From Owenia fusiformis (taxonomy: Eukaryota > Annelida > Polychaeta > Sabellida > Oweniidae): a DNA stretch of 64,000 nt. Below, one piece after another: positions 7,140 to 31,238 of the stretch. Under the pieces are notes generated by a model. The model was not told where the DNA came from. It saw only the letters and a program-made list of their open reading frames with translations, and ran no database searches. The stretch lies in NCBI GenBank assembly GCA_903813345.2, contig CAIIXF020000011.1, positions 13,373,754 through 13,437,753 of the forward strand, read 5' to 3'. The translations under genes were made by a program, and so were the position numbers. Numbering within the stretch: position 1 is the first letter of the stretch; each line of letters opens with the position of its first letter.

Positions 7140-7235
7140 TGGGGTTTCACAACCACCAGGACCATTACCAAGTCTTGGGAACAATAATGGCATCATGAGA
7201 GAAGACAACCTCCTGTACATAATATGTAATCAGTC

Positions 7236-7640
7236 AGTAACTTAGTTCAATCACCATCAAAGTGTAGATAACAGTCATTAGTGGCACAGCGAGAGATGAC
7301 AGGTGTCTAGGCAGAGATGGTCTGGGTATCAGAATGCATTAGTTTTGCAACAGAAGACAGTGATAATGTTGTTCTCTCCAAGGTAATGATTCCACACAAT
7401 ATGTAATCAGTCAGTAACTAAGTTCCATCACCATCAAAGTGTAGATAACAGTCATTAGTGGAATTGCGAGAGATGACAGGTGTCTAGGCAGAGATGGTCT
7501 GGGTATCAGAATGCATCAGTTGTGCAACATTATAGACTGTGATAATGTTGTTCTCTCCAAGGTAATGATTCCACACAATATATAATCAGTTAGTTACTTA
7601 GTTCCACCACAATCAGTGTAGTGTATAGTGTTCGTAGTGT
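7236..7640. repeat. 177-bp direct repeats, about 2.3 copies
   Basis: The stretch 'agtgtagataacagtcattagtgg' with its following sequence occurs at 7261 and 7438, a 177-bp offset with few differences. A third, more diverged partial copy begins near 7611. This is a more recent amplification inside the older repeat family. Confidence 0.75.
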
Positions 7641-8077
7641 AGGTAACAGCCATTATTGGCATCGCGAGAGATGTCAGCCTCCTTTCGATAACTTTCTAGG
7701 CAGAGATGTTCGGGGTATCAAAATACATAAGTGGTACCACACAAGAGATAATGTAGAGCACACCTGAAAGTACATGAAATTGGGGAAAATGTCACCCTGC
7801 AATTTGTGTAATAGATGCTGAATGCCAGACATTGGATGCAACTGGCATTACAAAGTATCAAAACCAAACGTATCACTTTTAAAACAATAACTGCACAAAC
7901 ATGCAAAATGTCACCACCAGCCATTTGTCGCACTTTGTTACATTAGCAGAACACTTATTATTTACAACCATCCAAGAATAACTTATTTCCGTTCATTAAT
8001 ATGAGAGTATAACAATATGTCACCACTTCTGTTGATGTACATGCATTGTACATTATCAATAAAAATACTGTACTTAC

Positions 8078-8291
8078 TTGAATCATATCCTTGAGATATC
8101 TCTTCCTTAGACAATGCAACAATAATGTTATTCTCTCCAAGGTTGGGCTCAGCCACAAAATAACTAAGTTCCATATCATTTTGAGTCTCGCTTACGAAGT
8201 CATAAGTGGTGTCACATAAGATTAGAGACAAGACAATGCTATGATAATGTGATTCTCTCCAACAAATGTCCAAGGTTGGGCTTAGCCACAA
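8078..8291 (-). pseudogene. Exon-like segment ending in a strong 5' splice-like site
   Basis: The minus strand is open over this stretch and ends ...GATTCAA followed by GTAAGTACAG, a near-ideal 5' splice site. The same junction (TTCAA/GTAAGTA) closes segments B and C in the 35-54 kb units. The frame contains FVAEPNLGENNII, in line with the YLGENN peptides of the repeat family. No acceptor was located with confidence. Most likely a relic exon of the module family. Confidence 0.35.
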
Positions 8292-8773
8292 AATAACTAA
8301 GTTCCATATCAGTTGGAGTCTCTGTTACAAAGTTATTAGTGGTGCCATAAGAGTATGATAATAACTTAACTAAGTTCCACCATCATTACAGTCAAGGTAT
8401 CAGTCGTTAGTGGTGCCACAAGATGTCGCTCTCTCAAAGGTTAGGAATGGACACAATACAACCAAATTCCATCGCAATTGTAGTCTCGGTTACAAAGACA
8501 TTTGAGGTGCCAGAGCATGATAATGTTCTTCTCTCAAAGGTAAGGTTTATACACAATATGTAATCGTAGTCCATAAATGAGCTCTACCATCATTGTAGTT
8601 GCAGGTAGCAGAGTCATTAGTGGTGCCACAGAAGAATATGACCATGTTGTTTTCGCCAAGGTAGGGATTACACACAGTCCATAACTATGTTGTTTTCGCC
8701 AAGGTAGGGATTGTACATAGTCCATATAACGAAATTCCATCATAATTACAGTCCAGGTAGCAGAGCCATTAGT

Positions 8774-9067
8774 TCAGGGGCGGATCTGGGAACCAACAAG
8801 GGGGGGGGGCCCAAACTTCTGGGCTGATAAAAAACTTCCGCGCTTGCGCGAAAAAAATTTTTTGGCCCCTAAAAACCAAAATGTGGGCCCTAATTTTGAA
8901 ATCTTGAGGCCCATTTTCTTCAAAATTTGGCCTAAAATTAAAAAATAAGGCCTTAGAAGGCCCATTTATGACCAAAAAGGCCTACTTTTTGGGGCAACAA
9001 GGCCTTTTTTGGCTCAAAAATTTTTTTGGGCCCAATTTTTTTTTTCTGGGCCCACCCGAGGGGGTTG
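8774..9067. mobile_element. 294-bp GGCC-rich insertion with TAGT duplication
   Basis: The repeat phrase 'cattagt' is interrupted at 8773 and resumes as 'tagtgagtggcac' at 9068. TAGT flanks both sides (8770-8773 and 9068-9071), as expected for a 4-bp target-site duplication. The insert starts 'tcaggggcggatctggg'. It holds many GGCC or GGCCC motifs spaced roughly 15-25 bp apart in AT-rich DNA. No coding capacity is evident; the open frames across it are composition artefacts. Confidence 0.6.
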
Positions 9068-9751
9068 TAGTGAGTGGCACAGAAAAGTATGACCATGTTG
9101 TTTTTGCCAAGGTAGGGATAACACACAGTCCATAAGTATGTTGTCTTCACCAAGGTAGGGATTGTACACAGTCCATATAACTAAATTCCAACAATATGAT
9201 AATGTTGTTCTTTCTAAAGTAAGAATTGCACAGAATATATAATAGCAGTGCATAACTAAATTTGAAATCCATAAATCAAGAGTCCATCACTACTTCCAAT
9301 GTAGTCTCAGTAACATGATGGGAGTATGATGATGATGTTGTTCTCTCCAAGGTGAGGGGCACACCTGAAAGTACATAAAATGAGGGAAAATCAACAACTA
9401 CTGTTTGATTTAAGAAATGATTTAAAGAGAACTTAAAGAGAACTTAAATAGAACAAGGAGTTAACATGCAAAATATCACTCTGCCATTTGTTATAGATGC
9501 CAAACGGCAATTTAATATTTAGCATATCACTTTTTCAAATTGTAACTAAAAATCCTTACAAAATTATACCTTTCAAATGATCAACCCCTAAAAGAAACAG
9601 TAAAACAAAGTATCAAAACAACCCCAAAAACCAAAAACTGGTAAAGTTAAAAACCCTCTAAAGTTTAAACATTACAACCACGCCCCCCCCCCAATTTCAA
9701 ATATACACATTATCTGCAACTGTGAGATGGCTTATAACTAGCTCACCTCAC

Positions 9752-9904
9752 CTTTGTGGATACAACATTCCAATTGCTACTTAATCTGCGACCACTTGTC
9801 CCTTGGAGTGGTAATTATATGCTATGTAGTTACAGACGTTACAAACAGATTGTTGATCTTTTCAGAAACTCCGAAGAGCATAGAAATTGTCAGATTGTTA
9901 CGAC
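9752..9904 (-). pseudogene. Old, broken copy of exon-like segment A
   Basis: Homologous to segment A of the 35-54 kb units (40301-40456 and copies). It keeps the acceptor-like GTACTTTCAG before the segment and a donor-like ACAAAG/GTGAGG at its end, and begins with an RNN reading like HNN of the intact copies. The homologous frame has two stops (a TAG after a VTT triplet and a later TAA), and the cysteines of the intact copies are mostly lost. Length 153 nt against 156 nt. An ancestral or relic copy. Confidence 0.55.
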
Positions 9905-10438
9905 CTGAAAGTACTTAAAAAAAGAAAAAAAGTCAGCAATAATTTGACTTTTCTTAAAAGCGATAAGTTAATATACCCAACTGTCAGAACTGGCCATTTT
10001 TCAGATATGAGTATATTTACATACGGCTTTAAAGTCAATGCATTAACATGTAAAATGTCACCACAGGCCATTTGTTACCGCCATCCACGATTTCATGTTG
10101 TAAGTAAAATATAATTCATAAAAAATGTAATTTCTCTTCATATCAGTATTTAAATCAAAAAAATTGCACTGACCAGGAATCGACCCATAGAGCATTCTAC
10201 CACTGAACCATAATTGCTTTCATGTTGTAAGTAAAATATAATTCATAAAAATAGTAATTTCTCTTCATATCAGTATTTAAATAAAAAAACATTGCACTGA
10301 CCAGGAACTGAACCATTGGCAACTGGATGACAGGTGAGCATTCTACCACTGAACCATCAATGATTTCATGTTGTAAGTAAAATATAATTCATTAAAAAAT
10401 GAATTTCTCTTTATATCAGTATTTAAATGAAAATCATT

Positions 10439-10508
10439 GCACTGACCAGGAATTGAACCATGGGCAGCTGGATGACAGGCGATCATTTTACCACTGAACC
10501 ATCAGTGC
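10439..10508 (-). pseudogene. tRNA-like monomer with perfect B box (example)
   Basis: A 70-nt body whose ends GCACTGA and TCAGTGC pair over all seven positions. The A box is TGGTTCAGTGG and the B box is GGTTCAATTCC, both matching Pol III consensus. The run after the body is TTTT. The D loop differs from the commoner monomer type (GGTAAAATGATC for GGTAGAATGCTC). Confidence 0.6.
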
Positions 10509-10728
10509 TTTCATGTTGTAAGTAAAATATAATTCATTAAAAAAGGAATTTCTCTTCATATCATTATTTAAATGAAAAACATTGCCCTGACCAGGAATCG
10601 ACCCATAGCCAGCTGGATGACAGGCGAGCATTCTACCACTGAACCATCAGTGCTTTCATGTTGAAAGTAAAATATAATTCATAAAAATAGTAATTTCTCT
10701 TCATATCAGTATTTAAATGAAAAACATT

Positions 10729-10798
10729 GCACTGACCAGGAATCGACCCATGGCCAGCTGGATGACAGGTTAGCATTCTACCACTGAACCATCAGTGC
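10729..10798 (-). pseudogene. tRNA-Gly-like monomer (example of the common type)
   Basis: The body aligns without gaps to the general metazoan tRNA-Gly(GCC) layout, which I recall from knowledge of the family. Acceptor stem: seven pairs. Positions 8-29 are as in tRNA-Gly. The anticodon would read GTC rather than GCC. The anticodon stem CTCGC/CCAGC hardly pairs, and the T stem keeps only two or three pairs. The A box lies at 10781-10791, the B box (one mismatch) at 10739-10749, and T5 at 10720-10724. Transcription is plausible; a working tRNA is unlikely. Confidence 0.65.
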
Positions 10799-13700
10799 TT
10801 TCATGTTGTAAGTAAAATATAATTCATAAAAATAGTAATTTCTATTCATATAAGTATTTAAATGAAAACATTGCGCTGACCAGGAATCGACCCATAGCCA
10901 GCTGGATGACAGGCGAGCATTCTACCACTGAACCATCAGTGCTTTCATGTTGTTAGTAAAGTATAATTCATAAAAATAGTAATTTCTCTTCATATCAGTA
11001 TTTAAATGAAATACATTGCACTGACCAGGAATTGAACCGTGGGCAGCTGGATGACAGGCGAGCATTCTACCACTGAACCATCAATGATTTCATGTTGTAA
11101 GTAAAATATAATTCATTAAAAAATGAATTTCTCTTTAGATCAGTATTTAAATGAAAATCATTGCACTGACCAGGAATTGAACCATGGGCAGCTGGATGAC
11201 AGGCGATCATTTTACCACTGAACCATCAGTGCTTTCATGTTGTAAGTAAAATATAATTCATTAAAAAAGGAATTTCTCTTCATATCATTATTTAAATGAA
11301 AAACATTGCCCTGACCAGGAATCGACCCATAGCCAGCTGGATGACAGGCGAGCATTCAACCACTGAACCATCAGTGCTTTCATGTTGAAAGTAAAATATA
11401 ATTCATAAAAATAGTAATTTCTCTTCATATCAGTATTTAAATGAAAAACATTGCACTGACCAGGAATCGACCAATGGCCAGCTGGATGACAGGTTAGCAT
11501 TCTACCACTGAACCATCAGTGCTTTCATGTTGTAAGTAAAATATAATTCATAAAAATAGTAATTTCTATTCATATAAGTATTTAAATGAAAAACATTGCG
11601 CTGACCAGGAATCGACCCATAGCCAGCTGGATGACAGGCGAGCATTCTACCACTGAACCATCAGTGCTTTCATGTTGCAACTAAAATATAATTCATTAAA
11701 AAAGGAATTTCTCTTCATATCAGTATTTAAATGAAAAACATTGCACTGACCAGGAATTGAACCGTGAGCAGCTGGATGACAAGCGAGCATTCTACCACTG
11801 AACCATCAGTGATTTCATGTTGAAAGTAAAATATAATTCATAAAAATAGTAATTTCTCTTCATATCAGTATTTAAATGAAAAACATTGCATTGACCAGGA
11901 ATCGACCCATGGCCAGCTGAATGACAGGTTAGCATTCTACCACTGAACCATCAGTGCTTTCATGTTGTAAGTAAAATATAATTCATAAAAATAGTAATTT
12001 CTATTCATATAAGTATTTAAATGAAAAACATTGCGCTGACCAGGAATCGACCCATAGCCAGCTGGATGACAGGCGAGCATTCTACCACTGAACCATCAGT
12101 GCTTTCATGTTGTAAGTAAAATATAATTCATTAAAAAAGGAATTTCTCTTCAAATCAGTATTTAAATGAAAAACATTGCACTGACCAGGAATCGACCCAT
12201 GGCCAGCTGGATGACAGGCGAGCATTCTACCACTGAACCATCAGTGCTTTCATGTTGAAAGTAAAATATAATTCATGAAATAGTAATTTCTTTTCATATA
12301 AGTATTTAAATGAAAAACATTGCACTGACCAGGAATCGACCCATAGCCAGCTGGATGACAGGCGAGCATTCTACCACTGAACCATCAGTGCTTTCATGTT
12401 GTTAGTAAAGTATAATTCATAAAAATAGTAATTTCTCTTCATATCAGTATTTAAATGAAATACATTGCACTGGCAAGGAATTGAACCGTGGGCAGCTGGA
12501 TGACAGGCGAGCATTCTACCACTGAACCATCAGTGCTTTCATGTTGAAAGTAAAATATAATTCATAAAAATAGTAATTTCTCTTCATATCAGTATTTAAA
12601 TGAAAAACATTGCACTGACCAGGAACTGAACCATGGGCAACTGGATGACAGGCGAGCATTCTACCACTGAACCATCAATGATTTCATGTTGTAAGTAAAA
12701 TATAATTCATTAAAAAAGGAATTTCTCTTTATATCAGTGTTTAAATGAAAATTATTGCCCTGACCAGGAATTGAACCATGGGCAGCTGGATGACAGGCGA
12801 TCATTTTACCACTGAACCATCAGTGCTTTCATGTTGTAAGTAAAATATAATTCATTAAAAAAGGAATTTCTCTTCATATCATTATTTAAATGAAAAACAT
12901 TGCCCTGACCAGGAATCGACCCATAGCCAGCTGGATGACAGGCGAGCATTCTACCACTGAACCATAATTGCTTTCATGTTGTAAGTAAAATATAATTCAT
13001 AAAAATAGTAATTTCTCTTCATATCAGTATTTAAATAAAAAAACATTGCACTGACCAGGAACTGAACCATTGGCAACTGGATGACAGGTGAGCATTCTAC
13101 CACTGAACCATCAATGATTTCATGTTGTAAGTAAAATATAATTCATTAAAAAATGAATTTCTCTTTATATCAGTATTTAAATGAAAATCATTGCACTGAC
13201 CAGGAATTGAACCATGGGCAGCTGGATGACAGGCGATCATTTTACCACTGAACCATCAGTGCTTTCATGTTGTAAGTAAAATATAATTCATTAAAAAAGG
13301 AATTTCTCTTCATATCATTATTTAAATGAAAAACATTGCCCTGACCAGGAATCGACCCATAGCCAGCTGGATGACAGGCGAGCATTCTACCACTGAACCA
13401 TCAGTGCTTTCATGTTGAAAGTAAAATATAATTCATAAAAATAGTAATTTCTCTTCATATCAGTATTTAAATGAAAAACATTGCACTGACCAGGAATCGA
13501 CCCATGGCCAGCTGGATGACAGGTTAGCATTCTACCACTGAACCATCAGTGCTTTCATGTTGTAAGTAAAATATAATTAATAAAAATAGTAGTTTCTATT
13601 CATATAAGTATTTAAATGAAAACATTGCGCTGACCAGGAATCGACCCATAGCCAGCTGGATGACAGGCGAGCATTCTACCACTGAACCATCAGTGCTTTC

Positions 13701-16700
13701 ATGTTGTTAGTAAAGTATAATTCATAAAAATAGTAATTTCTCTTCATATCAGTATTTAAATGAAATACATTGCACTGACCAGGAATTGAACCGTGGGCAG
13801 CTGGATGACAGGCGAGCATTCTACCACTGAACCATCAATGATTTCATGTTGTAAGTAAAATATAATTCATTAAAAAATGAATTTCTCTTTAGATCAGTAT
13901 TTAAATGAAAATCATTGCACTGACCAGGAATTGAACCATGGGCAGCTGGATGACAGGCGATCATTTTACCACTGAACCATCAGTGCTTTCATGTTGTAAG
14001 TAAAATATAATTCATTAAAAAAGGAATTTCTCTTCATATCATTATTTAAATGAAAAACATTGCCCTGACCAGGAATCGACCCATAGCCAGCTGGATGACA
14101 GGCGAGCATTCTACCACTGAACCATCAGTGCTTTCATGTTGCAAGTAAAATATAATTCATTAAAAAAGGAATTTCTCTTCATATCAGTATTTAAATGAAA
14201 AACATTGCACTGACCATGAATTGAACCGTGAGCAGCTGGATGACAAGCGAGCATTCTACCACTGAACCATCAGTGATTTCATGTTGAAAGTAAAATATAA
14301 TTCATAAAAATAGTAATTTCTCTTCATATCAGTATTTAAATGAAAAACATTGCATTGACCAGGAATCGACCCATGGCCAGCTGGATGACAGGTTAGCATT
14401 CTACCACTGAACCATCAGTGCTTTCATGTTGTAAGTAAAATATAATTCATAAAAATAGTAATTTCTATTCATATAAGTATTTAAATGAAAAACATTGCGC
14501 TGACCAGGAATCGACCCATAGCCAGCTGGATGACAGGCGAGCATTCTACCACTGAACCATCAGTGCTTTCATGTTGCAAGTAAAATATAATTCATTAAAA
14601 AAGGAATTTCTCTTCATATCAGTATTTAAATGAAAAACATTGCACTGACCAGGAATTGAACCGTGAGCAGCTGGATGACAAGCGAGCATTCTACCACTGA
14701 ACCATCAGTGATTTCATGTTGAAAGTAAAATATAATTCATAAAAATAGTAATTTCTCTTCATATCAGTATTTAAATGAAAAACATTGCATTGACCAGGAA
14801 TCGACCCATGGCCAGCTGGATGACAGGTTAGCATTCTACCACTGAACCATCAGTGCTTTCATGTTGTAAGTAAAATATAATTCATAAAAATAGTAATTTC
14901 TATTCATATAAGTATTTAAATGAAAAACATTGCGCTGACCAGGAATCGACCCATAGCCAGCTGGATGACAGGCGAGCATTCTACCACTGAACCATCAGTG
15001 CTTTCATGTTGTAAGTAAAATATAATTCATTAAAAAAGGAATTTCTCTTCAAATCAGTATTTAAATGAAAAACATTGCACTGACCAGGAATCGACCCATG
15101 GCCAGCTGGATGACAGGCGAGCATTCTACCACTGAACCATCAGTGCTTTCATGTTGAAAGTAAAATATAATTCATGAAATAGTAATTTCTTTTCATATAA
15201 GTATTTAAATGAAAAACATTGCACTGACCAGGAATCGACCCATAGCCAGCTGGATGACAGGCGAGCATTCTACCACTGAACCATCAGTGCTTTCATGTTG
15301 TTAGTAAAGTATAATTCATAAAAATAGTAATTTCTCTTCATATCAGTATTTAAATGAAATACATTGCACTGGCAAGGAATTGAACCGTGGGCAGCTGGAT
15401 GACAGGCGAGCATTCTACCACTGAACCATCAGTGCTTTCATGTTGAAAGTAAAATATAATTCATAAAAATAGTAATTTCTCTTCATATCAGTATTTAAAT
15501 GAAAAACATTGCACTGACCAGGAACTGAACCATGGGCAACTGGATGACAGGCGAGCATTCTACCACTGAACCATCAATGATTTCATGTTGTAAGTAAAAT
15601 ATAATTCATTAAAAAAGGAATTTCTCTTTATATCAGTGTTTAAATGAAAATTATTGCCCTGACCAGGAATTGAACCATGGGCAGCTGGATGACAGGCGAT
15701 CATTTTACCACTGAACCATCAGTGCTTTCATGTTGTAAGTAAAATATAATTCATTAAAAAAGGAATTTCTCTTCATATCATTATTTAAATGAAAAACATT
15801 GCCCTGACCAGGAATCGACCCATAGCCAGCTGGATGACAGGCGAGCATTCTACCACTGAACCATCAGTGCTTTCATGTTGTAAGTAAAATATAATTCATT
15901 AAAAAAGGAATTTCTCTTCATATCCGTATTTAAATGAAAAACATTGCACTGACCAGGAATCAACCAATGGCCAGCTGGATGACAGGTTAGCATTCTACCA
16001 CTGAACCATCAGTGCTTTCATGTTGAAAGTAAAATATAATTCATAAAAATAGTAATTTCTATTTATATAAGTATTTAAATGAAAAACATTGCACTGACCA
16101 GGAATTGAACCGTGGGCAGCTGGATGACAAGCGAGCATTCTACCACTGAACCATCAGTGCTTTCTTGTTGAAAGAAAAATATAATTCATAAAAATAGTTA
16201 TTTCTCTTCATATCAGTATTTAAATGAAAAACATTGCACTGACCAGGAATCGACCCATGGCCAGCTGGATGACAGGTTAGCATTCTACCACTGAACCATC
16301 AGTGCTTTCATGTTGAAAGTAAAATATAATTCATAAAAATAGTAATTTATCTTCATATAAGTATTTAAATGCAAAAACATTGCACTGACCAGGAATCGAC
16401 CCATAGCCAGCTGGATGACAGGCGAGCATTCTACCACTGAACCATCAGTGCTTTCATGTTGTTAGTAAAGTATAATTCATAAAAATAGTAATTTCTCTTC
16501 ATATCAGTATTTAAATGAAATACATTGCACTGACCAGGAATTGAACCGTGGGCAGCTGGATGACAGGCGAGCATTCTACCACTGAACCATCAGTGCTTTC
16601 ATGTTGAAAGTAAAATATAATTCATAAAAATAGTAATTTCTCTTCATATCAGTATTTAAATGAAAAACATTGCACTGACCAGGAACTGAACCATGGGCAA

Positions 16701-19700
16701 CTGGATGACAGGCGAGCATTCTACCACTGAACCATCAATGATTTCATGTTGTAAGTAAAATATAATTCATTAAAAAAGGAATATCTCTTTATATCAGTAT
16801 TTAAATGAAAATCATTGCACTGACCAGGAATTGAACCATGGGCAGCTGGATGACAGGCGATCATTTTACCACTGAACCATCAGTGCTTTCATGTTGTAAG
16901 TAAAATATAATTCATTAAAAAAGGAATTTCTCTTCATATCATTATTTAAATGAAAAACATTGCCCTGACCAGGAATCGACCCATAGCCAGCTGGATGACA
17001 GGCGAGCATTCTACCACTGAACCATCAGTGCTTTCATGTTGTAAGTAAAATATAATTCATTAAAAAAGGAATTTCTCTTCATATCAGTATTTAAATGAAA
17101 AACATTGCACTGACCAGGAATCGACCAATGGCCAGCTGGATGACAGGTTAGCATTCTACCACTGAACCATCAGTGCTTTCATGTTGTAAGTAAAATATAA
17201 TTCATAAAAATAGTAATTTCTATTCATATAAGTATTTAAATGAAAAACATTGCACTGACCAGGAATTGAACCGTGAGCAGCTGGATGACAAGCGAGCATT
17301 CTACCACTGAACCATCAGTTCTTTCATGTTGAAAGTAAAATATAATTCATAAAAATAGTAATTTCTCTTCATATCAGTATTTAAATGAAAAACATTGCAC
17401 TGACCAGGAATCGACCCATGGCCAGCTGGATGACAGGTTAGCATTCTACCACTGAACCATCAGTGCTTTCATGTTGTAAGTAAAATATAATTCATAAAAA
17501 TAGTAATTTCTATTCATATAAGTATTTAAATGAAAAACATTGCGCTGACCAGGAATCGACCCATAGCCAGCTGGATGACAGGCGAGCATTCTATCACTGA
17601 ACCATCAGTGCTTTCATGTTGTTAGTAAAGTATAATTCATAAGAATAGTAATTTCTCTTCATATCAGTATTTGAATGAAAAACATTGCACTGACCGGGAT
17701 TTGAACCATGGGCAGCTGGATGACAGGCGAGCATTCTACCACTGAACCATCATTGATTTCATGTTGTAAGTAAAATATAATTCATAAAAATAGTAATTTC
17801 TCTTCATATCAGTATTTAAATGAAAAACATTGCACTGACCAGGAATCGACCCATGGCCAGCTGGATGACAGGTTAGCATTCTACCACTGAACCATCAGTG
17901 CTTTCATGTTGTAAGTAAAATATAATTCATAAAAATAGTAATTTCTATTCATATAAGTATTTAAATGAAAAACATTGCGCTGACCAGGAATCGACCCATA
18001 GCCAGCTGGATGACAGGCGAGCATTCTACCACTGAACCATCAGTGCTTTCATGTTGTAAGTAAAATATAATTCATTAAAAAAGGAATTTCTCTTCAAATC
18101 AGTATTTAAATGAAAAACATTGCACTGACCAGGAATCGACCCATGGCCAGCTGGATGACAGGCGAGCATTCTACCACTGAACCATCAGTGCTTTCGTGTT
18201 GAAAGAAAAATATAATTCATGAAATAGTAATTTCTTTTCATATAAGTATTTAAATGAAAAACATTGCACTGACCAGGAATCGACCCATAGCCAGCTGGAT
18301 GACAGGCGAGCATTCTACCACTGAACCATCAGTGCTTTCATGTTGTTAGTAAAGTATAATTCATAAAAATAGTAATTTCTCTTCATATCAGTATTTAAAT
18401 GAAATACATTGCACTGGCCAGGAATTGAACCGTGGGCAGCTGGATGACAGGCGAGCATTCTACCACTGAACCATCAGTGCTTTCATGTTGAAAGTAAAAT
18501 ATAATTCATAAAAATAGTAATTTCTCTTCATATCAGTATTTAAATGAAAAACATTGCACTGACCAGGAACTGAACCATGGGCAACTGGATGACAGGCGAG
18601 CATTCTACCACTGAACCATCAATGATTTCATGTTGTAAGTAAAATATAATTCATTAAAAAAGGAATTTCTCTTTATATCAGTGTTTAAATGAAAATTATT
18701 GCCCTGACCAGGAATTGAACCATGGGCAGCTGGATGACAGGCGATCATTTTACCACTGAACCATCAGTGCTTTCATGTTGTAAGTAAAATATAATTCATT
18801 AAAAAGGAATTTCTCTTCATATCATTATTTAAATGAAAAACATTGCCCTGACCAGGAATCGACCCATAGCCAGCTGGATGACAGGCGAGCATTCTACCAC
18901 TGAACCATCAGTGCTTTCATGTTGTAAGTAAAATATAATTCATTAAAAAAAGAATTTCTCTTCATATCAGTATTTAAATGAAAAACATTGCACTGACCAG
19001 GAATCAACCAATGGCCAGCTGGATGACAGGTTAGCATTCTACCACTGAACCATCAGTGCTTTCATGTTGAAAGTAAAATATAATTCATAAAAATAGTAAT
19101 TTCTATTCATATAAGTATTTAAATGAAAAACATTGCACTGACCAGGAATTGAACCGTGGGCAGCTGGATGACAAGCGAGCATTCTACCACTGAACCATCA
19201 GTGCTTTCATGTTGAAAGAAAAATATAATTCATAAAAATAGTAATTTCTCTTCATATCAGTATTTAAATGAAAAACATTGCACTGACCAGGAATCGACCC
19301 ATGGCCAGCTGGATGACAGGTTAGCATTCTACCACTGAACCATCAGTGCTTTCATGTTGAAAGTAAAATATAATTCATAAAAATAGTAATTTCTCTTCAT
19401 ATAAGTATTTAAATGCAAAAACATTGCACTGACCAGGAATCGACCCATAGCCAGCTGGATGACAGGCGAGCATTCTACCACTGAACCATCAGTGCTTTCA
19501 TGTTGTTAGTAAAGTATAATTCATAAAAATAGTAATTTCTCTTCATATCAGTATTTAAATGAAATACATTGCACTGACCAGGAATTGAACCGTGGGCAGC
19601 TGGATGACAGGCGAGCATTCTACCACTGAACCATCAGTGCTTTCATGTTGAAAGTAAAATATAATTCATAAAAATAGTAATTTCTCTTCATATCAGTATT

Positions 19701-22700
19701 TAAATGAAAAACATTGCACTGACCAGGAACTGAACCATGGGCAACTGGATGACAGGCGAGCATTCTACCACTGAACCATCAATGATTTCATGTTGTAAGT
19801 AAAATATAATTCATTAAAAAAGGAATATCTCTTTATATCAGTATTTAAATGAAAATCATTGCACTGACCAGGAATTGAACCATGGGCAGCTGGATGACAA
19901 GCGATCATTTTACCACTGAACCATCAGTGCTTTCATGTTGTAAGTAAAATATAATTCATTAAAAAAGGAATTTCTCTTCATATCATTATTTAAATGAAAA
20001 ACATTGCCCTGACCAGGAATCGACCCATAGCCAGCTGGATGACAGGCGAGCATTCTACCACTGAACCATCAGTGCTTTCATGTTGTAAGTAAAATATAAT
20101 TCATTAAAAAAGGAATTTCTCTTCATATCAGTATTTAAATGAAAAACATTGCACTGACCAGGAATCGACCAATGGCCAGCTGGATGACAGGTTAGCATTC
20201 TACCACTGAACCATCAGTGCTTTCATGTTGTAAGTAAAATATAATTCATAAAAATAGTAATTTCTATTCATATAAGTATTTAAATGAAAAACATTGCACT
20301 GACCAGGAATTGAACCGTGAGCAGCTGGATGACAAGCGAGCATTCTACCACTGAACCATCAGTTCTTTCATGTTGAAAGTAAAATATAATTCATAAAAAT
20401 AGTAATTTCTCTTCATATCAGTATTTAAATGAAAAACATTGCACTGACCAGGAATCGACCCATGGCCAGCTGGATGACAGGTTAGCATTCTACCACTGAA
20501 CCATCAGTGCTTTCATGTTGTAAGTAAAATATAATTCATAAAAATAGTAATTTCTATTCATATAAGTATTTAAATGAAAAACATTGCGCTGACCAGGAAT
20601 CGACCCATAGCCAGCTGGATGACAGGCGAGCATTCTACCACTGAACCATCAGTGCTTTCATGTTGTTAGTAAAGTATAATTCATAAAAATAGTAATTTCT
20701 CTTCATATCAGTATTTAAATGAAATACATTGCAATGACAAGGAATTGAACCGTGGGCAGCTGGATGACAGGCGAGCATTCTACCACTGAACCATCAGTGC
20801 TTTCATGTTGAAAGTAAAATATAATTCATAAAAATAGTAATTTCTCTTCATATCAGTATTTAAATGAAAAACATTGCACTGACCAGGAATCGACCCATGG
20901 CCAGCTGGATGACAGGTTAGCATTCTACCACTGAACCATCAGTGCTTTCATGTTGTAAGTAAAATATAATTCATAAAAATAGTAATTTCTATTCATATAA
21001 GTATTTAAATGAAAAACATTGCGCTGACCAGGAATCGACCCATAGCCAGCTGGATGACAGGCGAGCATTCTACCACTGAACCATCAGTGCTTTCATGTTA
21101 TAAGTAAAATATAATTCATAAAAATAGTAATTTCTCTTCATATCAGTATTTAAATGAAAAACATTGCGCTGACCAGGAATCGACCCATAGCCAGCTGGAT
21201 GACAGGCGAGCATTCTATCACTGAACCATCAGTGCTTTCATGTTGTTAGTAAAGTATAATTCATAAGAATAGTAATTTCTCTTCATATCAGTATTTGAAT
21301 GAAAAACATTGCACTGACCGGGATTTGAACCATGGGCAGCTGGATGACAGGCGAGCATTCTACCACTGAACCATCATTGATTTCATGTTGTAAGTAAAGT
21401 ATAATTCATAAAAATAGTAATTTCTCTTCATATAAGTATTTAAATGAAAAACATTGCACTGACCAGGAATCGACCCATAGCCAGCTGGATGACAGGCGAG
21501 CATTCTACCACAGAACCATCAGTGATTTCATGTTGTAAGTAAAATATAATTCATAAAAAATGTAATTTATCTTCATATCAGTATTTAAATCAAAAAAAAT
21601 TGCACTGACCAGGAACTGAACCATGGGCAACTGGATGACAGGCGAGCATTCTACCACGGAACCATCAATGATTTCATGTTGTAAGTAAAATATAATTCAT
21701 TAAAAAGGAATTTCTCTTTATATCAGTATTTAAATGAAAATCATTGCACTGACCAGGAATTGAACCATGGGCAGCTGGATGACAGGCGATCATTTTACCA
21801 CTGAACCATCAGTGCTTTCAGGTTGTAAGTAAAATATAATTCATTAAAAAGGAATTTCTCTTCATATCATTATTTAAATGAAAAACATTGCCCTGACCAG
21901 GAATCGACCCATAGCCAGCTGGATGACAGGCGAGCATTCTACCACTGAACCATCAGTGCTTTCATGTTGTAAGTAAAATATAATTCATTAAAAAGGAATT
22001 TCTCTTCATATCAGTATTTAAATGAAAAACATTGCACTGACCAGGAATTGAACCGTGGGCAGCTGGATGACAAGCGAGCATTCTACCACTGAACCATCAG
22101 TGCTTTCATGTTGAAAGTAAAATATAATTCATAAAAATAGTAATTTCTCTTCATATCAGTATTTAAATGAAAAACATTGCACTGACCAGGAATCGAACCG
22201 TGGGCAGCTGGATGACAAGCGAGCATTCTACCACTGAACCATCAATGATTTCATGTTGTAAGTAAAATATAATTCATTAAAAAGGAATTTCTCTTTATAT
22301 CAGTATTTAAATGAAAATCATTGCACTGACCAGGAATTGAACCATGGGCAGCTGGATGACAGGCGATCATTTTACCACTGAACCATCAGTGCTTTCATGT
22401 TGTAAGTAAAATATAATTCATTAAAAAAGGAATTTCTCTTCATATCATTATTTAAATGAAAAACATTGCCCTGACCAGGAATCGACCCATAGCCAGCTGG
22501 ATGACAGGCGAGCATTCTACCACTGAGCCATCAGTGCTTTCATGTTGTAAGTAAAATATAATTCATTAAAAAGGAATTTCTCTTCATATCAGTATTTAAA
22601 TGAAAAACATTGCACTGACCAGAATTGAACCGTGGCAGCTGGATGACAAGCGAGCATTCTACCACTGAACCATCAGTGTTTCATGTTGAAAGTAAAGTAT

Positions 22701-25700
22701 AATTCATAAAAATAGTAATTTCTATTCATATAAGTATTTAAATGAAAACCATTGCGCTGACCAGGAATCGACCCATAGCCAGCTGGATGACAGGTGAGCA
22801 TTCTACCACTGAACCATCAGTGCTTTCATGTTGAAAGTAAAATAAAATTCATAAAAATAGTACTTTCTATTCATATAAGTATTTAAATGAAAAACATTGC
22901 GCTGACCAGGAATCGACCAATAGCCAGCTGGATGACAGGCGAGCATTCTACCACTGACCCATCAGTGCTTTCATGTTGTTAGTAAAGTATAATTCATAAA
23001 AATAGTAATTTCTCTTCATATCAGTATTTAAATGAAAAACATTGCACTGACCAGGAACTGAACCATGGGCAACTGGATGACAGGCGAGCATTCTACCACT
23101 GAACCATCAATGATTTCATGTTGTAAGTAAAATATAATTCATTAAAAAAGGAATTTCTCTTTATATCAGTATTTAAATGAAAATCATTGCACTGACCAGG
23201 AATTGAACCATGGGCAGCTGGATGACAGGCGATCATTTTACCACTGAACCATCAGTGCTTTCATGTTGTAAGTAAAATATAATTCATTAAAAAAGGAATT
23301 TCTCTTCATATCATTATTTAAATGAAAAACATTGCCCTGACCAGGAATCGACCCATAGCCAGCTGGATGACAGGCGAGTATTCTACCACTGAACCATCAG
23401 TGCTTTCATGTTGTAAGTAAAATATAATTCATTAAAAAAGGAATTTCTCTTCATATCAGTATTTAAATGAAAAACATTGCACTGACCAGGAATTGAACCG
23501 TGGGCAGCTGGATGACAAGCGAGCATTCTACCACTGAACCATCAGTGCTTTCATGTTGAAAGTAAAATATAATTCATAAAAATAGTAATTTCTCTTCATA
23601 TAAGTATTTAAATGAAAAACATTACGCTGACCAGGAATCGACCCATAGCCAGCTGGATGACAGGCGAGCATTCTACCACTGAACCATCAGTGCTTTCATG
23701 TTGTTAGTAAAGTATAATTCATAAAAATAGTAATTTCTCTTCATATCAGTATTTAAATGAAATACATTGCACTGACCAGGAATTGAACCGTGGGCAGCTG
23801 GATGACAGGCGAGCATTCTACCACTGAACCATCAGTGCTTTCATGTTGAAAGTAAAATATAATTCATTAAAAAAGGAATTTCTCTTCATATCATTATTTA
23901 AATGAAAAACATTACCCTGACCAGGAATCGACCCATAGCCAGCTGGATGACTGGCGAGAATTCTACCACTGAACCATCAGTGCTTTCATGTTGTAAGTAA
24001 AATATAATTCATAAAAATAGTAATTTCTATTCATATAAGTATTTAAATGAAAAACATTGCGCTGACCAGGAATCGACCCATAGCCAGCTGGATGACAGGC
24101 GAGCATTCTACCACTGAACCATCAGTGCTTTCATGTTGTTACTAAAGTATAATTCATAAAAATAGTAATTTCTCTTCATATCAGTATTTAAATGAAAAAC
24201 ATTGCACTGACCGGGATTTGAACCATGGGCAGCTGGATGACAGGCGAGCATTCTACCACTGAACCATCAGTGCTTTCATGTTGTTAGTAAATTATAATTC
24301 ATAAAAATAGTAATTTCTCTTCATATCAGTATTTGAATGAAAAACATTGCACTGACCGGGATTTGAACCATGGGCAGCTGGATGACAGGCGAGCATTCTA
24401 CCACTGAACCATCAGTGATTTCATGTTGTAAGTAAAGTATAATTCATAAAAATAGTAATTTCTCTTCATATAAGTATTTAAATGAAAAACATTGCACTGA
24501 CCAGGAATCGACCCATAGCCAGCTGGATGACAGGCGAGCATTCTACCACAGAACCATCAGTGATTTCATGTTGTAAGTAATATATAATTCATAAAAAATG
24601 TAATTTCTCTTCATATCAGTATTTAAATCAAAAAAAATTGCACTGACCAGGAATCGACCCATAGCCAACTGGATGACAGGCGAGCATTCTACCACTTAAC
24701 CATCATTGCTTTCATGTTGTAAGTAAAATATAATTCATAAAAATAGTAATTTCTCTTCATATCAGTATTTAAATAAAAAACATTGCACTGACCAGGAACT
24801 GAACATGGGCAACTGGATGACAGGCGAGCATTCTACCACTGAACCATCAATGATTTCATGTTGTAAGTAAAATATAATTCATTAAAAAAGGAATTTCTCT
24901 TCATATCAGTATTCAAATGAAAAACATTGCACTGACCAGGAATTGAACCATGGGCAGATGGATGACAGGCGATCATTTTACCACTGAACCATCAGTGCTT
25001 TCATGTTGTAAGTAAAATATAATTCATTAAAAAAGGAATTTCTCTTCATATCATTATTTAAATGAAAAACATTGCGCTGACCAGGAATCGACCCATAGCC
25101 AGCTGGATGACAGGCGAGCATTCTACCACTGAACCATCAGTGCTTTCATGTTGTAAGTAAAATATAATTCATTAAAAAAGGAATTTCTCTTCATATCATT
25201 ATTTAAATGAAAAACATTGCGCTGACCAGGAATCGACCCATAGCCAGCTGGATGACAGGCGAGCATTCTACCACTGAACCATCAGTGCTTTCATTTTGTA
25301 AGTAAAATATAATTCATTAAAAAAGGAATTTCTCTTCATATCATTATTTAAATGAAAAACATTGCACTGACCAGGAATCGACCCATAGCCAGCTGGATGA
25401 CAGGGGAGCATTCTACCACTGAACCATCAGTGCCTTCATGTTGTAAGTAAAATACAATTCATAAAAATAGTAATTTCTCTTCATATAAGTATTTAAATGA
25501 AAAACATTGCACTGACTAGGAATCGACCCATAGCCAGCTGGATGACAGGCGAGCATTCTACCACTGAACAATCAGTGCTTTCATGTTGTAAGTAAAATAT
25601 AATTCATAAAAAATGTAATTTCTCTTCATATCAGTATTTAAATGAAAAGAATTGCACCGACCAGGAATCGACCCATGGCCAGCTGGTTGACAGGCGAGCA

Positions 25701-27005
25701 TTCTACCACTGAACCATCAGTGCTTTCATGTCGTCCCTAAAATATTATTCATAAAAATTTTAATTTCTCTTCATATCAGTATTTAAATGAAAAACATTGC
25801 ACTGACCAGGAATTGAACCATGGGCAACTGGATGACAGGCGAGCATTCTACCACTGAACCATCAATGATTTCATGTTGTAAGTAAAATATAATTCATAAA
25901 AAATGTAATTCCTCTTCATATCAGTTTTTAAATGAATAAATTGTAACTGACCAGGAATCGACCCATCGCCAGCTGGATGACAGGCGAGCATTCTACCACT
26001 GAACCATCATTGCTTTCATGTTGTAAGTAAAATATAATTCATAAAAATTGTAATTTCTCTTCATATCAGTATTTAAATGAAAAACATAGAACTGACCAGG
26101 AATTGAACCATGGGCAACTGGATGACAGGCTATCATTCTACCACTGAACCATCAGTGATTTCATGCTGTAAGAGAAGAATAATTCATAAAAGATGTAGTT
26201 TCTCTTCATATGAGTATTTAAATGAAAAACATTGCACTGACCAGGAATCGACCCATGGCCAGCTGGATTACAGCCGAGCATTCTACCAATGAACCATCAG
26301 TGCTTTCATGTTGTAAGTGAAGTATAATTCATAAAAGATGTAGTTTCTCTTCATATCAGTATTTAAATGAAAAACATTGCACTGACCAGGAATCGAACCA
26401 CTGCCAGCTGGATGACAGGTTAGCATTCTACCACTGAACCATCAGTGCTTTCATGTTGTAAGTAAAGTACAATTCATAAAAACAGTAATTTCTCTTCATA
26501 TAAGTATTTAAATGAAAAACATTGCACTGACCAGGAATCGACCCATCGCCAGCTGGATGACACGCGAGCATTCTACCACTGAACCATCAGTGCTTTCATG
26601 TCGTCACTAAAATATTATTCAAAAAAATTGTAATTTCTCTTCATATCAGTATTTAAATGAAAAAGATTGCACTGACCAGGAATTGAACCATGGGCAACTG
26701 GATGACAGGCGAGCATTCTACCATTGAACCATCAGTGATTTCATGTTGTAAGTAAAATATAATTCATAAATTATTTAATTTCTCTTCATATCAATATTTA
26801 AATGAAAAACATTGCACTGACCAGGAATGGAACCATGGCCAGCTGGATGACATGCGATTGTTGTCTATCTTCATATCCGTTTTTAACTGACCAGGAGACG
26901 ACCCATGGCCAGCATTGTGATGGCGAGCATTCTACCACTGAACCACAAATGCTTTCATTTTAACACTAAAGTAAAATTCATAAAAATTGTAATTTATCTT
27001 CAGTT

Positions 27006-29019
27006 GATTAATTTTAGACATTTTTAAACAAAAGAGGCAGGCCAACCAATATATGTCCCTTCATGAGTATTGCTAAATTTGAAAGCAATTTCAAGCAAAT
27101 TGATAGAATACTTGTGGGAGCCTAACCCCATAAATGTGGGGTAGGATTTTCGAATCAACCCCACAACTACTAGACTACTTGTGCATTGAAATCTTGCGGT
27201 TGAACAACGTTGTCAGTAGTTGACACCACACTGACGGAGCCAGGGGGTTGGGGCATGGGGACGCCAAAGACTTTAAGCTGGACACATTTTAAGAGTGAAT
27301 TCATCAATTGTTGAGTATTTCGAACTAATTACAAGAAACAATATGTTTATAGACAGACAGAGGGATGAACAAACACGTGGGCGAGAACAATACACTAGGC
27401 CAAAAGATGAAACATATTGTGTCAAATCTTCTATATCAAAACGCCTATTTTATGTTCGTAAAACGTATTTTTATGGCAATACCTTTCTAATGTGCTTAAA
27501 ATGTTCGAATGTTTTCATTATATAAAATCACCATGGAAAGTCGATCTTTTAAATCTTGACACAACTCATTCTCACTTTTCTAATGTAAATGTTATTTTTC
27601 TCGAACGATATAGACGACTTTCCAGATAACATCATACGCGTAGCCAGGGGGTTGCGATGGGTGCATCCCCCATAACCAATAAAACCATGAGAATGAAGAA
27701 GAAAGGAGCTTTAAAATGCTTTTTATTTGAAGCTTCTAGCTCTGGGACGCATCAATTTTTGTAAAATTCAAATAAATCTTATTTTGGGCTTGTAATGCTA
27801 CAATCACAACCCCCCTGACTGAAGACCGAAATTGTTTTGGCGATCGCACCCCCTCCCCCCCGATCTAAAGCTTGCTATGCCGGCCTCTGAACATTGAGGG
27901 GTTTTAACCATTTCTGAATAGTTGAATTGAGATACATATTATTGTCTGATTCCATCGTGTACACATGCAATACGACAATACAGATTAAGAAACTAATATG
28001 ATCAATCGATTGAAAGAAACATATTCGTAATCAATGATACAATTAACGCAAATGTCTGCAACCTTTTTATAACACTATATCACAAGACCAAATAACCCTC
28101 ACCCCCACCCCCCAAAAAATGTCAAATTGAGGTCAACGTGACTTAGGGGGTGCCAAAAATGCTATATTTCCTTAAATAATAATCGTTTATGTTTCAAATG
28201 AAATAAAATCCAGATAATAGCTTTTCAGAACTGAAGTTGTACTTTAAGGATAGGATGTACCATGTATCGCCAAAACTCAATGAAATCAATGGAACGCGAA
28301 ATAGAATAATCAACAATTTCAAGTTGTTTATGTCTTTAACATTCATATTTCAAGAAGTAATATCAATAACAATAAGTGTTTCGGTAAGATGTTGTCCAAG
28401 CATTACGGAACATGCACAAAAATTGCAAAGGCATTCATCCATATCATCAGGAAGAAGAAAAAAACCTTTTCTTTCAAATTCGTATTAGAGAACGCGATTT
28501 ACGAATATTTGGCGGAATTGTAGTTTACTTTTTAAAATTCATAAGATAGTCAATAGTGTCTTGATTTTTATGAAATAAAGCATGTTGGAAAGGGAATTCA
28601 ATCTGTTCAAAAATTATTTAACATAGCAATAATGATTACTTTGCATTTTCTACAGTATTCGAAACAAGGCAACTTTCAATATTTTAAAAATAATTCAATA
28701 TTATTTGAATTTCATTTCTCAAAAAGTGCCATTTATCTGTGCCCAGATTAGAAAAATGACAGAGGCACAGAAACATTGCAAAAGAGTACTATTGAAACAT
28801 CGAGCATAATATATGGCATCCAAAAAATATTTTTAGGCTATAGTGTGCTCAGAATTACTTTTGCACAATGAGAAAATATCACTGAAGAACATAGGAAAAT
28901 TAATAAGCCAGTAATTAATTAATAAGACAGCGTTCAGGACGGAAAATCCAAAAATAGCCACCTTAGGTAGAATTTCATATTCAATGATTGAGTTAACGTT
29001 GATATATTATACCATGATC
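27006..29019. other. AT-rich DNA with G/C-run fragments, no gene recognised
   Basis: 'gccagggggttg' occurs at about 27239 and 27642, and C-rich runs lie near 27810, 27848 and 28101. This suggests fragments of a dispersed GC-run repeat, possibly inverted ends around 27640-27890. The short frames (27295-27525, 28237-28488) resemble no family I know. Confidence 0.4.
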
Positions 29020-30603
29020 ATTGTTAGCTGAGAACGATGGATCTCATAGACACATACAGGAGCTGATCGTGATAAGGATCTCGTAGATATATTCAGTGAT
29101 CATTGGAAGCTGAGAACTATGGATCCCAAAGACACATACATGAGCTGACATGGATATCATAGATGAATAAACGCAAGGAGCACACGCGTCTCGAACTCAT
29201 AGATATATTTAGTGACCATTGGAAGCTGAGAACTATGGATCCCATAGACACAAACAGGAGCTGATCGTGATAAGGATCTCATAGATATACAGTATTTAGT
29301 GATCATTGGAAGGTGAGAACTATGGATCCCATAGACACATACAGGAGCTGATCGTGATAAGGATCTAGTAGATATACTCAGTGATCATTGGAAGCTGAGA
29401 ACTATGGATCTTATAGACACATACAGGAGCAGATATGGATCTCATAGATATATTTAGTGACCATTGGAAGCTGAGAACTATGGATCCCATAGACACGTAC
29501 AGGAGCTGATCGTGATAAGGATCTCATAGATATATTCAGTGATCATTGGAAGCTGAGAACTATGAATCCCATAGACACGTACAGGAGCTGATCGTGATAA
29601 GGATCTCATAGATATATTCAGTGATCATTGGAAGCTGAGAATTATGGATCCCATAGACACATACAGGAGCAGACATGGATCTCATAGATATACAGCATTT
29701 AGTGACCATTGGAAGCTGAGAACTATGGATCTCATAGACACATACAGGAGCAGCCATGGATCTCATAGATATACAGTATTTAGTGACCATTGGAAGCTGA
29801 GAACTATGGATCTCATAGACAAATACAGGAGCTGACATGGATCTCATAGATATACTCAGTGACCATTGGAAGCTGACAACTATGGATCCCATAGACACAA
29901 ACAGGAGCTGATCGTGATAAGGATCTCATAGATATACAGTATTTAGTGATCATTGGAAGGTGAGAACTATGGATCCCATAGACACATACAGGAGCTGATC
30001 GTGATAAGGATCTAGTAGATATACTCAGTGATCATTGGAAGCTGAGAACTATGGATCTTATAGACACATACAGGAGCAGATATGGATCTCATAGATATAT
30101 TTAGTGACCATTGGAAGCTGAGAACTATGGATCTCATAGACACATACAGGAGCTGATCGTGATAAGGATCTCAAACACATTCAGTGACCATTGGAAGCTG
30201 AGAACTATGGATCCCATAGACACATACAGGAGCAGCCATGGATCTCATAGATATACAGTATTTAGTGACCATTGGAAGCTGAGAACTATGGATCTCATAG
30301 ACACATACAGGAGCTGACATGGATCTCATAGATATACTCAGTGACCATTGGAAGCTGACAACTATGGATCACATAGACATAAACAGGAGCTTACATGGGT
30401 CTCATTAAAATCCACTGATCATTGGACGCTGTGAAATACGGATGATGGATCGACATATACAGTGATAATTTTGAGCTGACAACTATGGATCGCAAACAGG
30501 ATAAGGATCTCAAAGATATATTTTGATCATTGGAAGATGACAGCTATGGATCTCATAGACACATACAGGAGCTAACGTGGATCTCATTAAAATTAACTGA
30601 TCA
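29020..30603 (+). repeat. ~82-bp minisatellite, first block
   Basis: A unit containing 'agctgagaactatggatc', 'catagacacatacaggagc', 'tgatcgtgataaggatc' and 'agtgatcattgga' repeats with spacing near 82 bp (gatcattgg at 29541 and 29623), with shorter variants. About 20 units. Open frames on both strands, up to 112 codons, are passive products of the repetition. Confidence 0.9.
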
Positions 30604-31235
30604 TTGTTACGCGGTATATGGCATACATTCATGGTTGCGCGGTATTTGTGATACGGGTGAATATTCCATACTCACCTGCGGTATATGGCATATTCCGCAG
30701 GTGAGTATGCGATATTCCGCAGTGAATATGCGATACATCGATTTCAGTGAATACCCGATACTCACCTGCGGAATATGTCATACTCACTTGCGGAATATGC
30801 CATATACCGCAGGTGAATATGACATATACCGCAGGTGAAAACGTGATACAGAAACCCTTGATTTGATTGGTTGCGAGAATCGACTCTAAATGTAAAACTA
30901 CGCTGGATTACCAATATAATTAGTGCGTCGAGTACTAATATATGAATCCTGGATTGATTGATTAAGTTTATTACGCGAGATTGGTGACTGATACTTCTGC
31001 TAAGTTAATATATTCGATACACAGTACTGTTGATTCAGTAATCATATAATAATTTATAACAATTTACTTGTTCGTTCAATCGATGCAATTGACAATTGCG
31101 TACTTCCGTATCACGTTCTCATTGGTTAGTGTGTATGCCATATACCGCAGGTGAATCTGTCATACACCGCAAGTGAATATGCCATATTCGTTGCGGAATA
31201 TGACATATTTTTGTATCGTGTTTACCGCGTAACAA
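30604..31235. mobile_element. 632-bp foldback element inserted in the minisatellite
   Basis: Both ends carry TTGTTACGCGGTA in inverted orientation (30604-30616 and 31223-31235). TCA flanks both sides, and the minisatellite phrase 'gatcattggaagc' is split between them, so the insertion is later than the array. Inside, near both ends, the motif CACCTGCGGTATATGGCATA and variants recur in both orientations. No coding frame; a non-autonomous DNA element of unassigned family. Confidence 0.7.
30667..30709. repeat. 43-bp near-perfect palindrome
   Basis: The arms CATACTCACCTGCGG and CCGCAGGTGAGTATG are exact inverted copies. The middle (about 13 bp) is palindromic apart from a few mismatches. More copies of the arm lie at 30750-30840 and 31137-31200. 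Confidence 0.85.
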
Positions 31236-31238
31236 TCA

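What the first reader, a model, noticed from the sequence alone, without database searches (positions are those of the whole stretch)
10089..27005. A 17-kb satellite in which nearly every monomer is a tRNA-like Pol III cassette
About 115 head-to-tail 145-bp monomers each carry, on the minus strand, a 70-nt tRNA-Gly-like body with an A box, a B box and a following run of 4-5 T. The window shows a gap-free fit to the tRNA-Gly layout and full acceptor-stem pairing, but broken anticodon and T stems. Retained promoter boxes and terminator with a lost decoding structure would fit selection or sequence homogenisation acting on transcription rather than on translation. Possible roles (inference): a small-RNA source, a TFIIIC-binding boundary, or simply a selfish satellite.
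Basis: partly seen in the sequence, partly recalled or inferred. Interest (0 to 1): 0.85.

Follow-up and report, generated by a model that had tools for sequence, protein, structure and literature searches.

The report
Satellite DNA from decayed tRNA-glycine genes
A 17-kb block of about 116 near-identical 145-bp repeats most likely descends from a tandem row of ordinary tRNA-glycine genes, a row of which still stands intact elsewhere in the same genome; the repeats have lost the tRNA fold but keep much of the gene's start and stop signals, so they show how a useful gene array can turn into satellite DNA.

Summary
The array is real: 116 head-to-tail units of about 145 bp on the minus strand, collinear with tRNA-Gly, acceptor stem paired, anticodon and T stems broken. 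One detail fails: a canonical B box is present in only 39 of 116 units, and A box, canonical B box and T4 together in 29.

Origin: the genome also holds intact tRNA-Gly(GCC) genes, including tandem arrays of 146/147-bp units on C7 and of about 150-bp units on C2. The satellite body differs from the gene at 12 of 71 positions, and its spacer is homologous to the C7 spacer (0 of 500 shuffles as good). A sister satellite at C11:11.86 Mb shares seven body changes. So it is a decayed tandem tRNA-gene array, comparable to 5S-rDNA-derived satellites; a SINE origin is disfavoured.

Selection on transcription stays open. The body as a whole varies like the spacer. A box, B box and T run show a modest deficit of changes (26 seen, 47.5 expected), but rare variants and sliding controls do not confirm it. 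Best reading: a homogenising satellite with inherited, partly retained Pol III signals. Novelty: new variant of a known kind.

The parts
10089..27005 (-). 145-bp satellite array, 116 tRNA-Gly-derived units read on the minus strand
   Evidence: TRF period 145; unit extraction; 105 Rfam tRNA matches, 57 at or over cut-off
16526..16596 (-). one of three best-scoring tRNA-like bodies (71 nt, 44.0 bits; B box GGTTCAATTCC)
26739..26952 (-). irregular 214-bp edge unit; a 214-bp first spacing also opens the arrays in L028 (C11:12.92 Mb) and L030 (C11:13.52 Mb)
6551..10089 (.). left flank, matching C11:13.507-13.510 Mb in two main pieces (97.1% over 2233 bp, 99.1% over 1025 bp)
26700..34168 (.). right array edge and flank, matching C11:13.524-13.533 Mb in pieces (98.4% over 3862, 99.7% over 2172, 99.1% over 1122, 98.9% over 276 bp); the match runs to the end of the stretch fetched

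Best explanation
The array is a satellite that grew out of a tandem tRNA-Gly(GCC) gene cluster. The repeated unit is the whole gene unit: leader ending ATGAAA, 71-nt tRNA body, T-run terminator and spacer. Shown: intact tandem tRNA-Gly arrays exist in this genome, one (C7) with a spacer homologous to the satellite's; gene arrays with broken members exist; a sister satellite that decayed differently exists; unit number differs between two arrays with nearly identical flanks. Inferred: the gene form is ancestral; surplus copies of a cluster decayed; a decayed unit was amplified by unequal exchange and spread to several sites on contigs C11 and C2; concerted evolution keeps units alike; A box, part of the B boxes and T run are there mainly by descent. 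Residual Pol III or TFIIIC binding is plausible but unshown. Most likely it does no cellular job.
For: Intact genes: 22 exact and 35 in all within 2 mismatches of a 34-nt gene pattern, lying as one single gene (L013), three spaced genes (L015), an array of about 150-bp units (L014) and one of 146/147-bp units (L016). Satellite body against gene: same 71-nt layout without gaps, 12 differences. Satellite spacer against C7 spacer: 52 identical of 77 columns, 0 of 500 shuffles as good; core without the T-run and leader ends 29 of 51, 0 of 500. The C2:29.32 spacer does not match the satellite's (38 of 500 shuffles as good, core 353 of 500). The C11:11.86 satellite (L018 consensus): spacer 62 of 76 columns identical to the satellite's and 55 of 78 to C7's, seven body changes shared with the satellite. 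Every listed match to the spacer alone lies on C2 near 9.98-10.01 Mb or C11 between 9.9 and 15.3 Mb (truncated list). Turnover: window array and paralogue 124 kb away have flanks 97-99.7% identical in aligned pieces but 116 and 97 units. Pace: body changed at 12 of 71 sites on one lineage; spacer differs from C7's at about 21 of 73 aligned sites over two lineages (from the alignment; the halving is inference). The C7 gene array already has deletion-bearing units among intact ones; 11 tRNA-Gly calls for 18 units.
Against: A box, B box and T run show fewer changes than expected: parsimony A+B 231 against 308.6 (P 0.008); nearest pairs A+B 23 against 40.9 base-matched (P 0.006), A+B+T 26 against 47.5 (P 0.002); 1 of 20 changed body sites in the 22 box sites (P 0.002). 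A purely passive satellite would not be expected to show this. The acceptor pair 7-64 changed on both sides (G-C to A-T) and stayed paired. The body of the sister satellite is not a halfway form: it has 16 differences from the gene, more than the satellite's 12.
Confidence: 0.8

Rival explanations
1. The arrays are retained, at least in part, because Pol III elements work: transcription or TFIIIC binding gives small RNAs, a chromatin boundary, or an advantage to the satellite itself. Loss of the tRNA fold with sparing of A box, B box and terminator is the footprint. (Shares the origin with the best explanation.)
For: 1 of 20 changed body sites lies in the 22 box sites (P 0.002); nearest pairs A+B+T 26 against 47.5 (P 0.002) while the rest of the body has 81 against 81.8 expected; parsimony T run 21 against 47.9 (P 0.025); the terminator T run has 0.60 changes per site in nearest pairs against 4.40 and 2.00 for two other T runs of the unit, although the 112-116 run also differs between subfamilies; T4+ in 617 of 639 and exact A box in 459 of 639 satellite units.
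Against: Rare variants: A box 131 seen, 114 expected; B box 83 against 116, P 0.059. Parsimony A box alone P 0.145; T run alone in nearest pairs P 0.20 base-matched. Rotating the A+B mask round the unit gives rank 43 raw and 25 base-normalised of 145 and 15 of 145; 10% of all pairs of 11-mers are as low. Window against paralogue: A+B 7 against 12.6, P 0.052; nearest pairs of window and paralogue units 6 against 6.1. Canonical B box in only 216 of 639 units.
Confidence: 0.2
2. It is a SINE-derived satellite: part of a tRNA-headed retroposon amplified in tandem.
For: tRNA-related body with A and B boxes; SINE-derived satellites are known in squamates (PMC10702118).
Against: The whole unit, spacer included, matches the unit of an intact tRNA-Gly gene array. 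A T run follows the tRNA body directly, as in the genes. The listed matches to the spacer are in the array regions (truncated list). The one copy seen alone in 2 kb (L017) is a broken unit. Target-site duplications were not tested.
Confidence: 0.05
3. The array is a functional tRNA gene cluster, perhaps decoding something other than Gly.
For: 57 matches reach the Rfam tRNA cut-off; acceptor stem intact.
Against: Anticodon stem 2/5, T stem 3/5; ARAGORN finds 4 in the window and no amino acid against 33 tRNA-Gly calls at the four gene loci; the predicted fold of the consensus is not a cloverleaf, z -0.26, while the gene folds as one, z -2.65.
Confidence: 0.02

Closest known systems
5S-rDNA-derived satellites, such as PcP190 of frogs (PMC11675491: abstract and two passages seen); others named in the reference list of PMC12692304 (passages seen)
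   Same: A tandem Pol III gene family turned satellite; a part resembling the transcribed gene plus a variable part; PcP190 is reported transcribed.
   Different: Here the parent is tRNA-Gly, and intact gene arrays and decayed arrays are shown in one genome, with spacer homology to one gene array.
SINE-derived satellites (sSats) of squamates (PMC10702118: abstract and Discussion section read)
   Same: Satellites from tRNA-type sequence, up to 1000 units per locus, homogenised.
   Different: Those derive from portions of dispersed SINEs; here the unit is a gene plus its spacer, and no SINE turned up in the listed matches.
Tandem tRNA gene arrays: Entamoeba (PMC2652664: passages seen), human 1q23.3 tRNA VNTR (PMC4041453: abstract seen)
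   Same: tRNA genes in tandem units; variable unit number in the human case.
   Different: The Entamoeba paper saw no clear evidence of pseudogene copies; here decoding structure is lost across whole arrays.
Satellites with tRNA-derived parts in Harttia catfish (PMC11955569: two passages seen)
   Same: tRNA-derived sequence in satDNA.
   Different: Described there as complex mixtures with SINE and/or LINE parts, not as one tRNA gene unit.

Membership tests
Satellite derived from a tandem tRNA-Gly gene array | Unit body collinear with the genome's own tRNA-Gly gene | tested here: met
   71 nt without gaps, 12 differences
Satellite derived from a tandem tRNA-Gly gene array | Spacer homologous to the spacer of an intact tRNA-Gly tandem array | tested here: met
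   C7 spacer, 0 of 500 shuffles as good, core alone too; C2:29.32 spacer not
Satellite derived from a tandem tRNA-Gly gene array | Decoding structure lost | tested here: met
   anticodon stem 2/5, T stem 3/5; fold z -0.26
SINE-derived satellite | Dispersed SINE copies of the same sequence outside arrays | tested here: inconclusive
   none in the listed matches, but the lists are truncated and few candidates were scored; one lone broken unit, L017
SINE-derived satellite | Target-site duplications and SINE tail | not tested
   no dispersed full copy at hand
Type 2 Pol III gene | A box | tested here: met
   exact TGGTTCAGTGG in 105 of 116 units
Type 2 Pol III gene | Canonical B box GGTTCRANNCC (consensus recalled) | tested here: not met
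   39 of 116 units; 57 more with G at the first T
Type 2 Pol III gene | T4+ terminator after the body | tested here: met
   104 of 116 units
Type 2 Pol III gene | Transcription by Pol III | not testable with these tools
   no expression data
TFIIIC-bound boundary (ETC-like) | TFIIIC occupancy and insulation | not testable with these tools
   no ChIP or Hi-C data

The most novel reading that the evidence does not exclude
A satellite that keeps a working Pol III promoter and terminator by selection after the tRNA fold was given up: over a thousand non-tRNA Pol III units acting in chromatin (TFIIIC binding) or as a short-RNA source, or favoured because transcription helps the array itself persist.
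Probability: 0.2. Interest if true: 0.75.

Novelty: new variant of a known kind. Interest (0 to 1): 0.45.

Why it matters
Many satellites have no traceable parent (general knowledge). Here intact gene arrays, a gene array with broken members and two differently decayed satellites sit in one genome, so the path from a multicopy gene to satellite DNA can be followed. It also offers a natural test of whether Pol III promoter elements outlive the RNA they once made.

Tried and rejected
SINE origin: no SINE-like dispersed copy in the listed matches (truncated lists); disfavoured by spacer homology to the gene array. tRNA-Asp idea from the anticodon letters GTC: ARAGORN reads a four-base anticodon, the stem is broken and the body matches tRNA-Gly. 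Rfam matches to a pestivirus 3' UTR, psRNA6, MIR841, mascRNA and tmRNA are far below their cut-offs and taken as chance or cross-matches. Higher-order repeat: no strong period; the best of 59 lags is 21 units, mean identity 0.938 against 0.916 overall. Sister satellite as a halfway form: its spacer is somewhat nearer to C7's, its body is not (16 differences), so I call it a sister. Selection on boxes: several overlapping tests, mixed; I do not claim it. Bacterial promoter scan: not informative for a genome of this kind. Species: an assembly-size text search gave nothing; the size is near that of the Owenia fusiformis assembly (505.8 Mb, 12 chromosome-scale scaffolds; PMC9977687, passages seen), which is a guess only. 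Literature: ten searches; some searches were aimed at tRNA-derived satellites or tandem tRNA genes. They brought SINE-derived and 5S-derived satellites and one mention of tRNA-derived satDNAs (PMC11955569), but in the listings and passages seen no satellite traced to an intact tandem tRNA gene array. The library lacks most subscription papers. Xenopus satellite 1 as a Pol III-transcribed satellite is recalled, not looked up.
Full report
What is there. The window lies at C11:13373754-13437753 of a 498-Mb assembly of 525 contigs. Tandem Repeats Finder gives one array of period 145 at 10190-26857, 115 copies. An anchor search on the minus strand gives 116 units; 96 are 145 bp long, 12 are 144, 6 are 146, one is 142 and one, at the right edge, 214 bp. 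Mean identity to consensus is 94.7% for 115 units; the 214-bp unit was dropped. The Rfam tRNA model gives 105 matches at E<=1, 57 at or over its cut-off, best 44 bits. ARAGORN calls four, none with an amino acid.

Anatomy of a unit, minus strand. Positions 1-71: tRNA-Gly-like body; 8-18: A box; 50-60: B box; 75-79: T run; then spacer, ending in the leader ATGAAA (box names recalled). Acceptor stem 7/7 paired, anticodon stem 2/5, T stem 3/5. Exact A box in 105 of 116, T4+ in 104, canonical B box in 39, the G variant of the B box in 57, and all three canonical elements in 29. Over 15 satellite loci, the window included, the figures are 459, 617, 216, 270 and 136 of 639 units; pieces under 86 nt were skipped. 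So 'nearly every monomer is a Pol III cassette' overstates the B box. The predicted RNA fold of the consensus body is not a cloverleaf (z -0.26), while the gene folds as one (z -2.65).

Elsewhere in the genome. A 36-nt piece of the satellite body occurs 1126 times within 3 mismatches (366 + 760; reversed control 0). The list is truncated; the places listed are on C2 and C11, and contigs that sort after C11 could not be seen. Listed matches to the unit and to the spacer alone are also on C2 near 9.98-10.01 Mb and on C11 between 9.9 and 15.3 Mb; both lists are truncated too.

The parent. A pattern that tolerates the gene sequence led to four more loci, fetched. They hold tRNA-Gly(GCC) genes: a single gene on C2 (L013), three on C6 0.8 and 1.2 kb apart (L015), an array of about 150-bp units on C2 (L014) and an array of mostly 146/147-bp units on C7 (L016). 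ARAGORN tRNA-Gly there, with up to 66.7 bits. A 34-nt gene pattern has 22 exact and 35 matches in all within two mismatches. The C7 consensus unit shares with the satellite the trailer start ATGTTTTT(G)CATTTA and the leader end AACATGAAA, and the spacer aligns as a whole: 52 identical of 77 columns, no shuffle of 500 as good; core only, 29 of 51, again none. The C2:29.32 spacer does not match the satellite's (38 of 500 shuffles as good; core 353 of 500), and matches the C7 spacer over its full length (0 of 500) but not clearly in the core (41 of 500).

A sister satellite. A 147-bp satellite at about C11:11.863-11.869 Mb (L018) has a spacer 62 of 76 columns identical to the satellite's and 55 of 78 to C7's. 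It shares seven body changes with the satellite (37, 40, 43, 48, 49, 52, 61), so both seem to come from one decayed ancestor. Its body is not a halfway form: 16 differences from the gene against 12 for the satellite; it keeps a 5/5 anticodon stem, has a T stem of 3/5 and an acceptor stem of 6/7. DNA-level homology outside the transcribed part, to an intact gene array, makes tandem gene duplication followed by decay the best-supported origin.

Turnover. The window array has a paralogue 124 kb away. Flanks are 97-99.7% identical in the main aligned pieces on both sides, but the arrays hold 116 and 97 units. A unit-by-unit alignment pairs 72 and leaves 44 and 25 unmatched. Units therefore seem to come and go fast, as unequal exchange would do (inference). 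In the C7 gene array, units with the same internal deletions recur in the same order (spacings 133, 254, 142 at two places), which looks like the same process in a cluster with intact genes. Whether the duplication is real or a retained haplotype cannot be told here.

Is there selection on the Pol III elements? Against or neutral: window variation per column is 0.059 for the body, 0.048 for the spacer, 0.009 for the A box and 0.099 for the B box. Among 507 distinct units rare variants number 131 in the A box (114 expected), 83 in the B box (116 expected, P 0.059) and 206 in the acceptor stem (147 expected, an excess, P 0.012). For: parsimony changes on a tree of 518 units, A+B 231 against 308.6, P 0.008 (A alone 0.145, B alone 0.031), T run 21 against 47.9, P 0.025; window only, A+B 19 against 30.6, P 0.035. 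Mutual nearest pairs (126 pairs, 242 changes): A+B 23 against 36.7 by length, P 0.0065, and 40.9 base-matched, P 0.006; A+B+T 26 against 47.5, P 0.002; T run alone P 0.20; rest of body 81 against 81.8. Of 20 changed body sites among gene, satellite and L018 one lies in the 22 box sites, P 0.002. Window against paralogue (68 pairs, 83 changes): A+B 7 against 12.6, P 0.052, T run 0. Controls that weaken it: rotating the A+B mask gives ranks 43 (raw) and 25 (base-normalised) of 145 for parsimony and 15 of 145 for nearest pairs, with 8 of 145 for A+B+T. Ten per cent of all pairs of 11-mers are as low. By group of loci the nearest-pair A+B counts are 6 against 6.1 (window and paralogue), 1 against 4.1 (C2), 13 against 17.1 and 3 against 9.4 (two groups of C11). 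The data sets overlap, and recombination between units breaks tree assumptions. I call this suggestive and not established.

How it most likely works. A tandem tRNA-Gly cluster had more copies than needed; broken units spread by unequal exchange; one lineage lost its T stem, its descendants decayed further, and one was amplified to over a thousand units on at least two contigs (inference from the above). The body changed at 12 of 71 sites, about the pace of the spacer (about 21 of 73 aligned sites over two lineages, pace argument is inference), so no constraint on the tRNA as a whole is needed. Promoter boxes and terminator remain by descent, perhaps with weak selection. Some units with a canonical B box may still bind TFIIIC (inference).

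Known relatives. 5S-rDNA-derived satellites such as PcP190, which is reported transcribed (PMC11675491, abstract and two passages), are the nearest kind. SINE-derived satellites (PMC10702118, abstract and Discussion) are near in content but not in origin. In my searches (named in Tried and rejected) I saw no satellite traced to an intact tandem tRNA gene array; one paper mentions tRNA-derived satDNAs in passing (PMC11955569, passages). Hence: new variant of a known kind.

Noticed in passing
window 6551-34168 and C11:13.507-13.533 Mb (L033, L034, L030): Segmental duplication or retained haplotype, main flank pieces 97-99.7% identical, with the satellite array inside at 116 against 97 units.
   Followed up: partly
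window 38185-38734, 42842-43220, 47335-47808, 51928-53632: Four 19-bp minisatellite arrays 4.5-4.7 kb apart, perhaps inside a larger tandem repeat. At the first and last, long open frames in three plus-strand frames encode similar short peptide repeats, as a 19-mer read in frame would give.
   Followed up: no
window 29196-30391, 32704-32913, 33311-33611: Tandem arrays of 82/245, 76 and 45-bp units next to the satellite, with similar words such as GGATCTCAT in their consensus units; the first two match each other.
   Followed up: no
L016 (C7:34.7035-34.7085 Mb): tRNA-Gly gene array in which units with the same internal deletions recur in the same order about 1.68 kb apart: decay spreading in a cluster with intact genes.
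   Followed up: partly
L018 (C11:11.8615-11.8645 Mb; listed units to 11.8693 Mb): 147-bp sister satellite with a fully paired anticodon stem, one pair differing from the gene on both sides (C-G to T-A), but a broken T stem; predicted fold z -2.59, not a cloverleaf.
   Followed up: partly
L014 units at 2004, 5063, 5670, 6123: Some units of the C2 tRNA-Gly array carry a repeated CGAT in the T loop (CGATCGATTCC) and score 28.1-35.4 bits against a cut-off of 29.
   Followed up: no
G000 C5:1461038-1461460 and C11:33489372-33489799: Pairs of weak tRNA matches (41.8 bits) about 350 bp apart, possibly further tRNA-like repeats.
   Followed up: no
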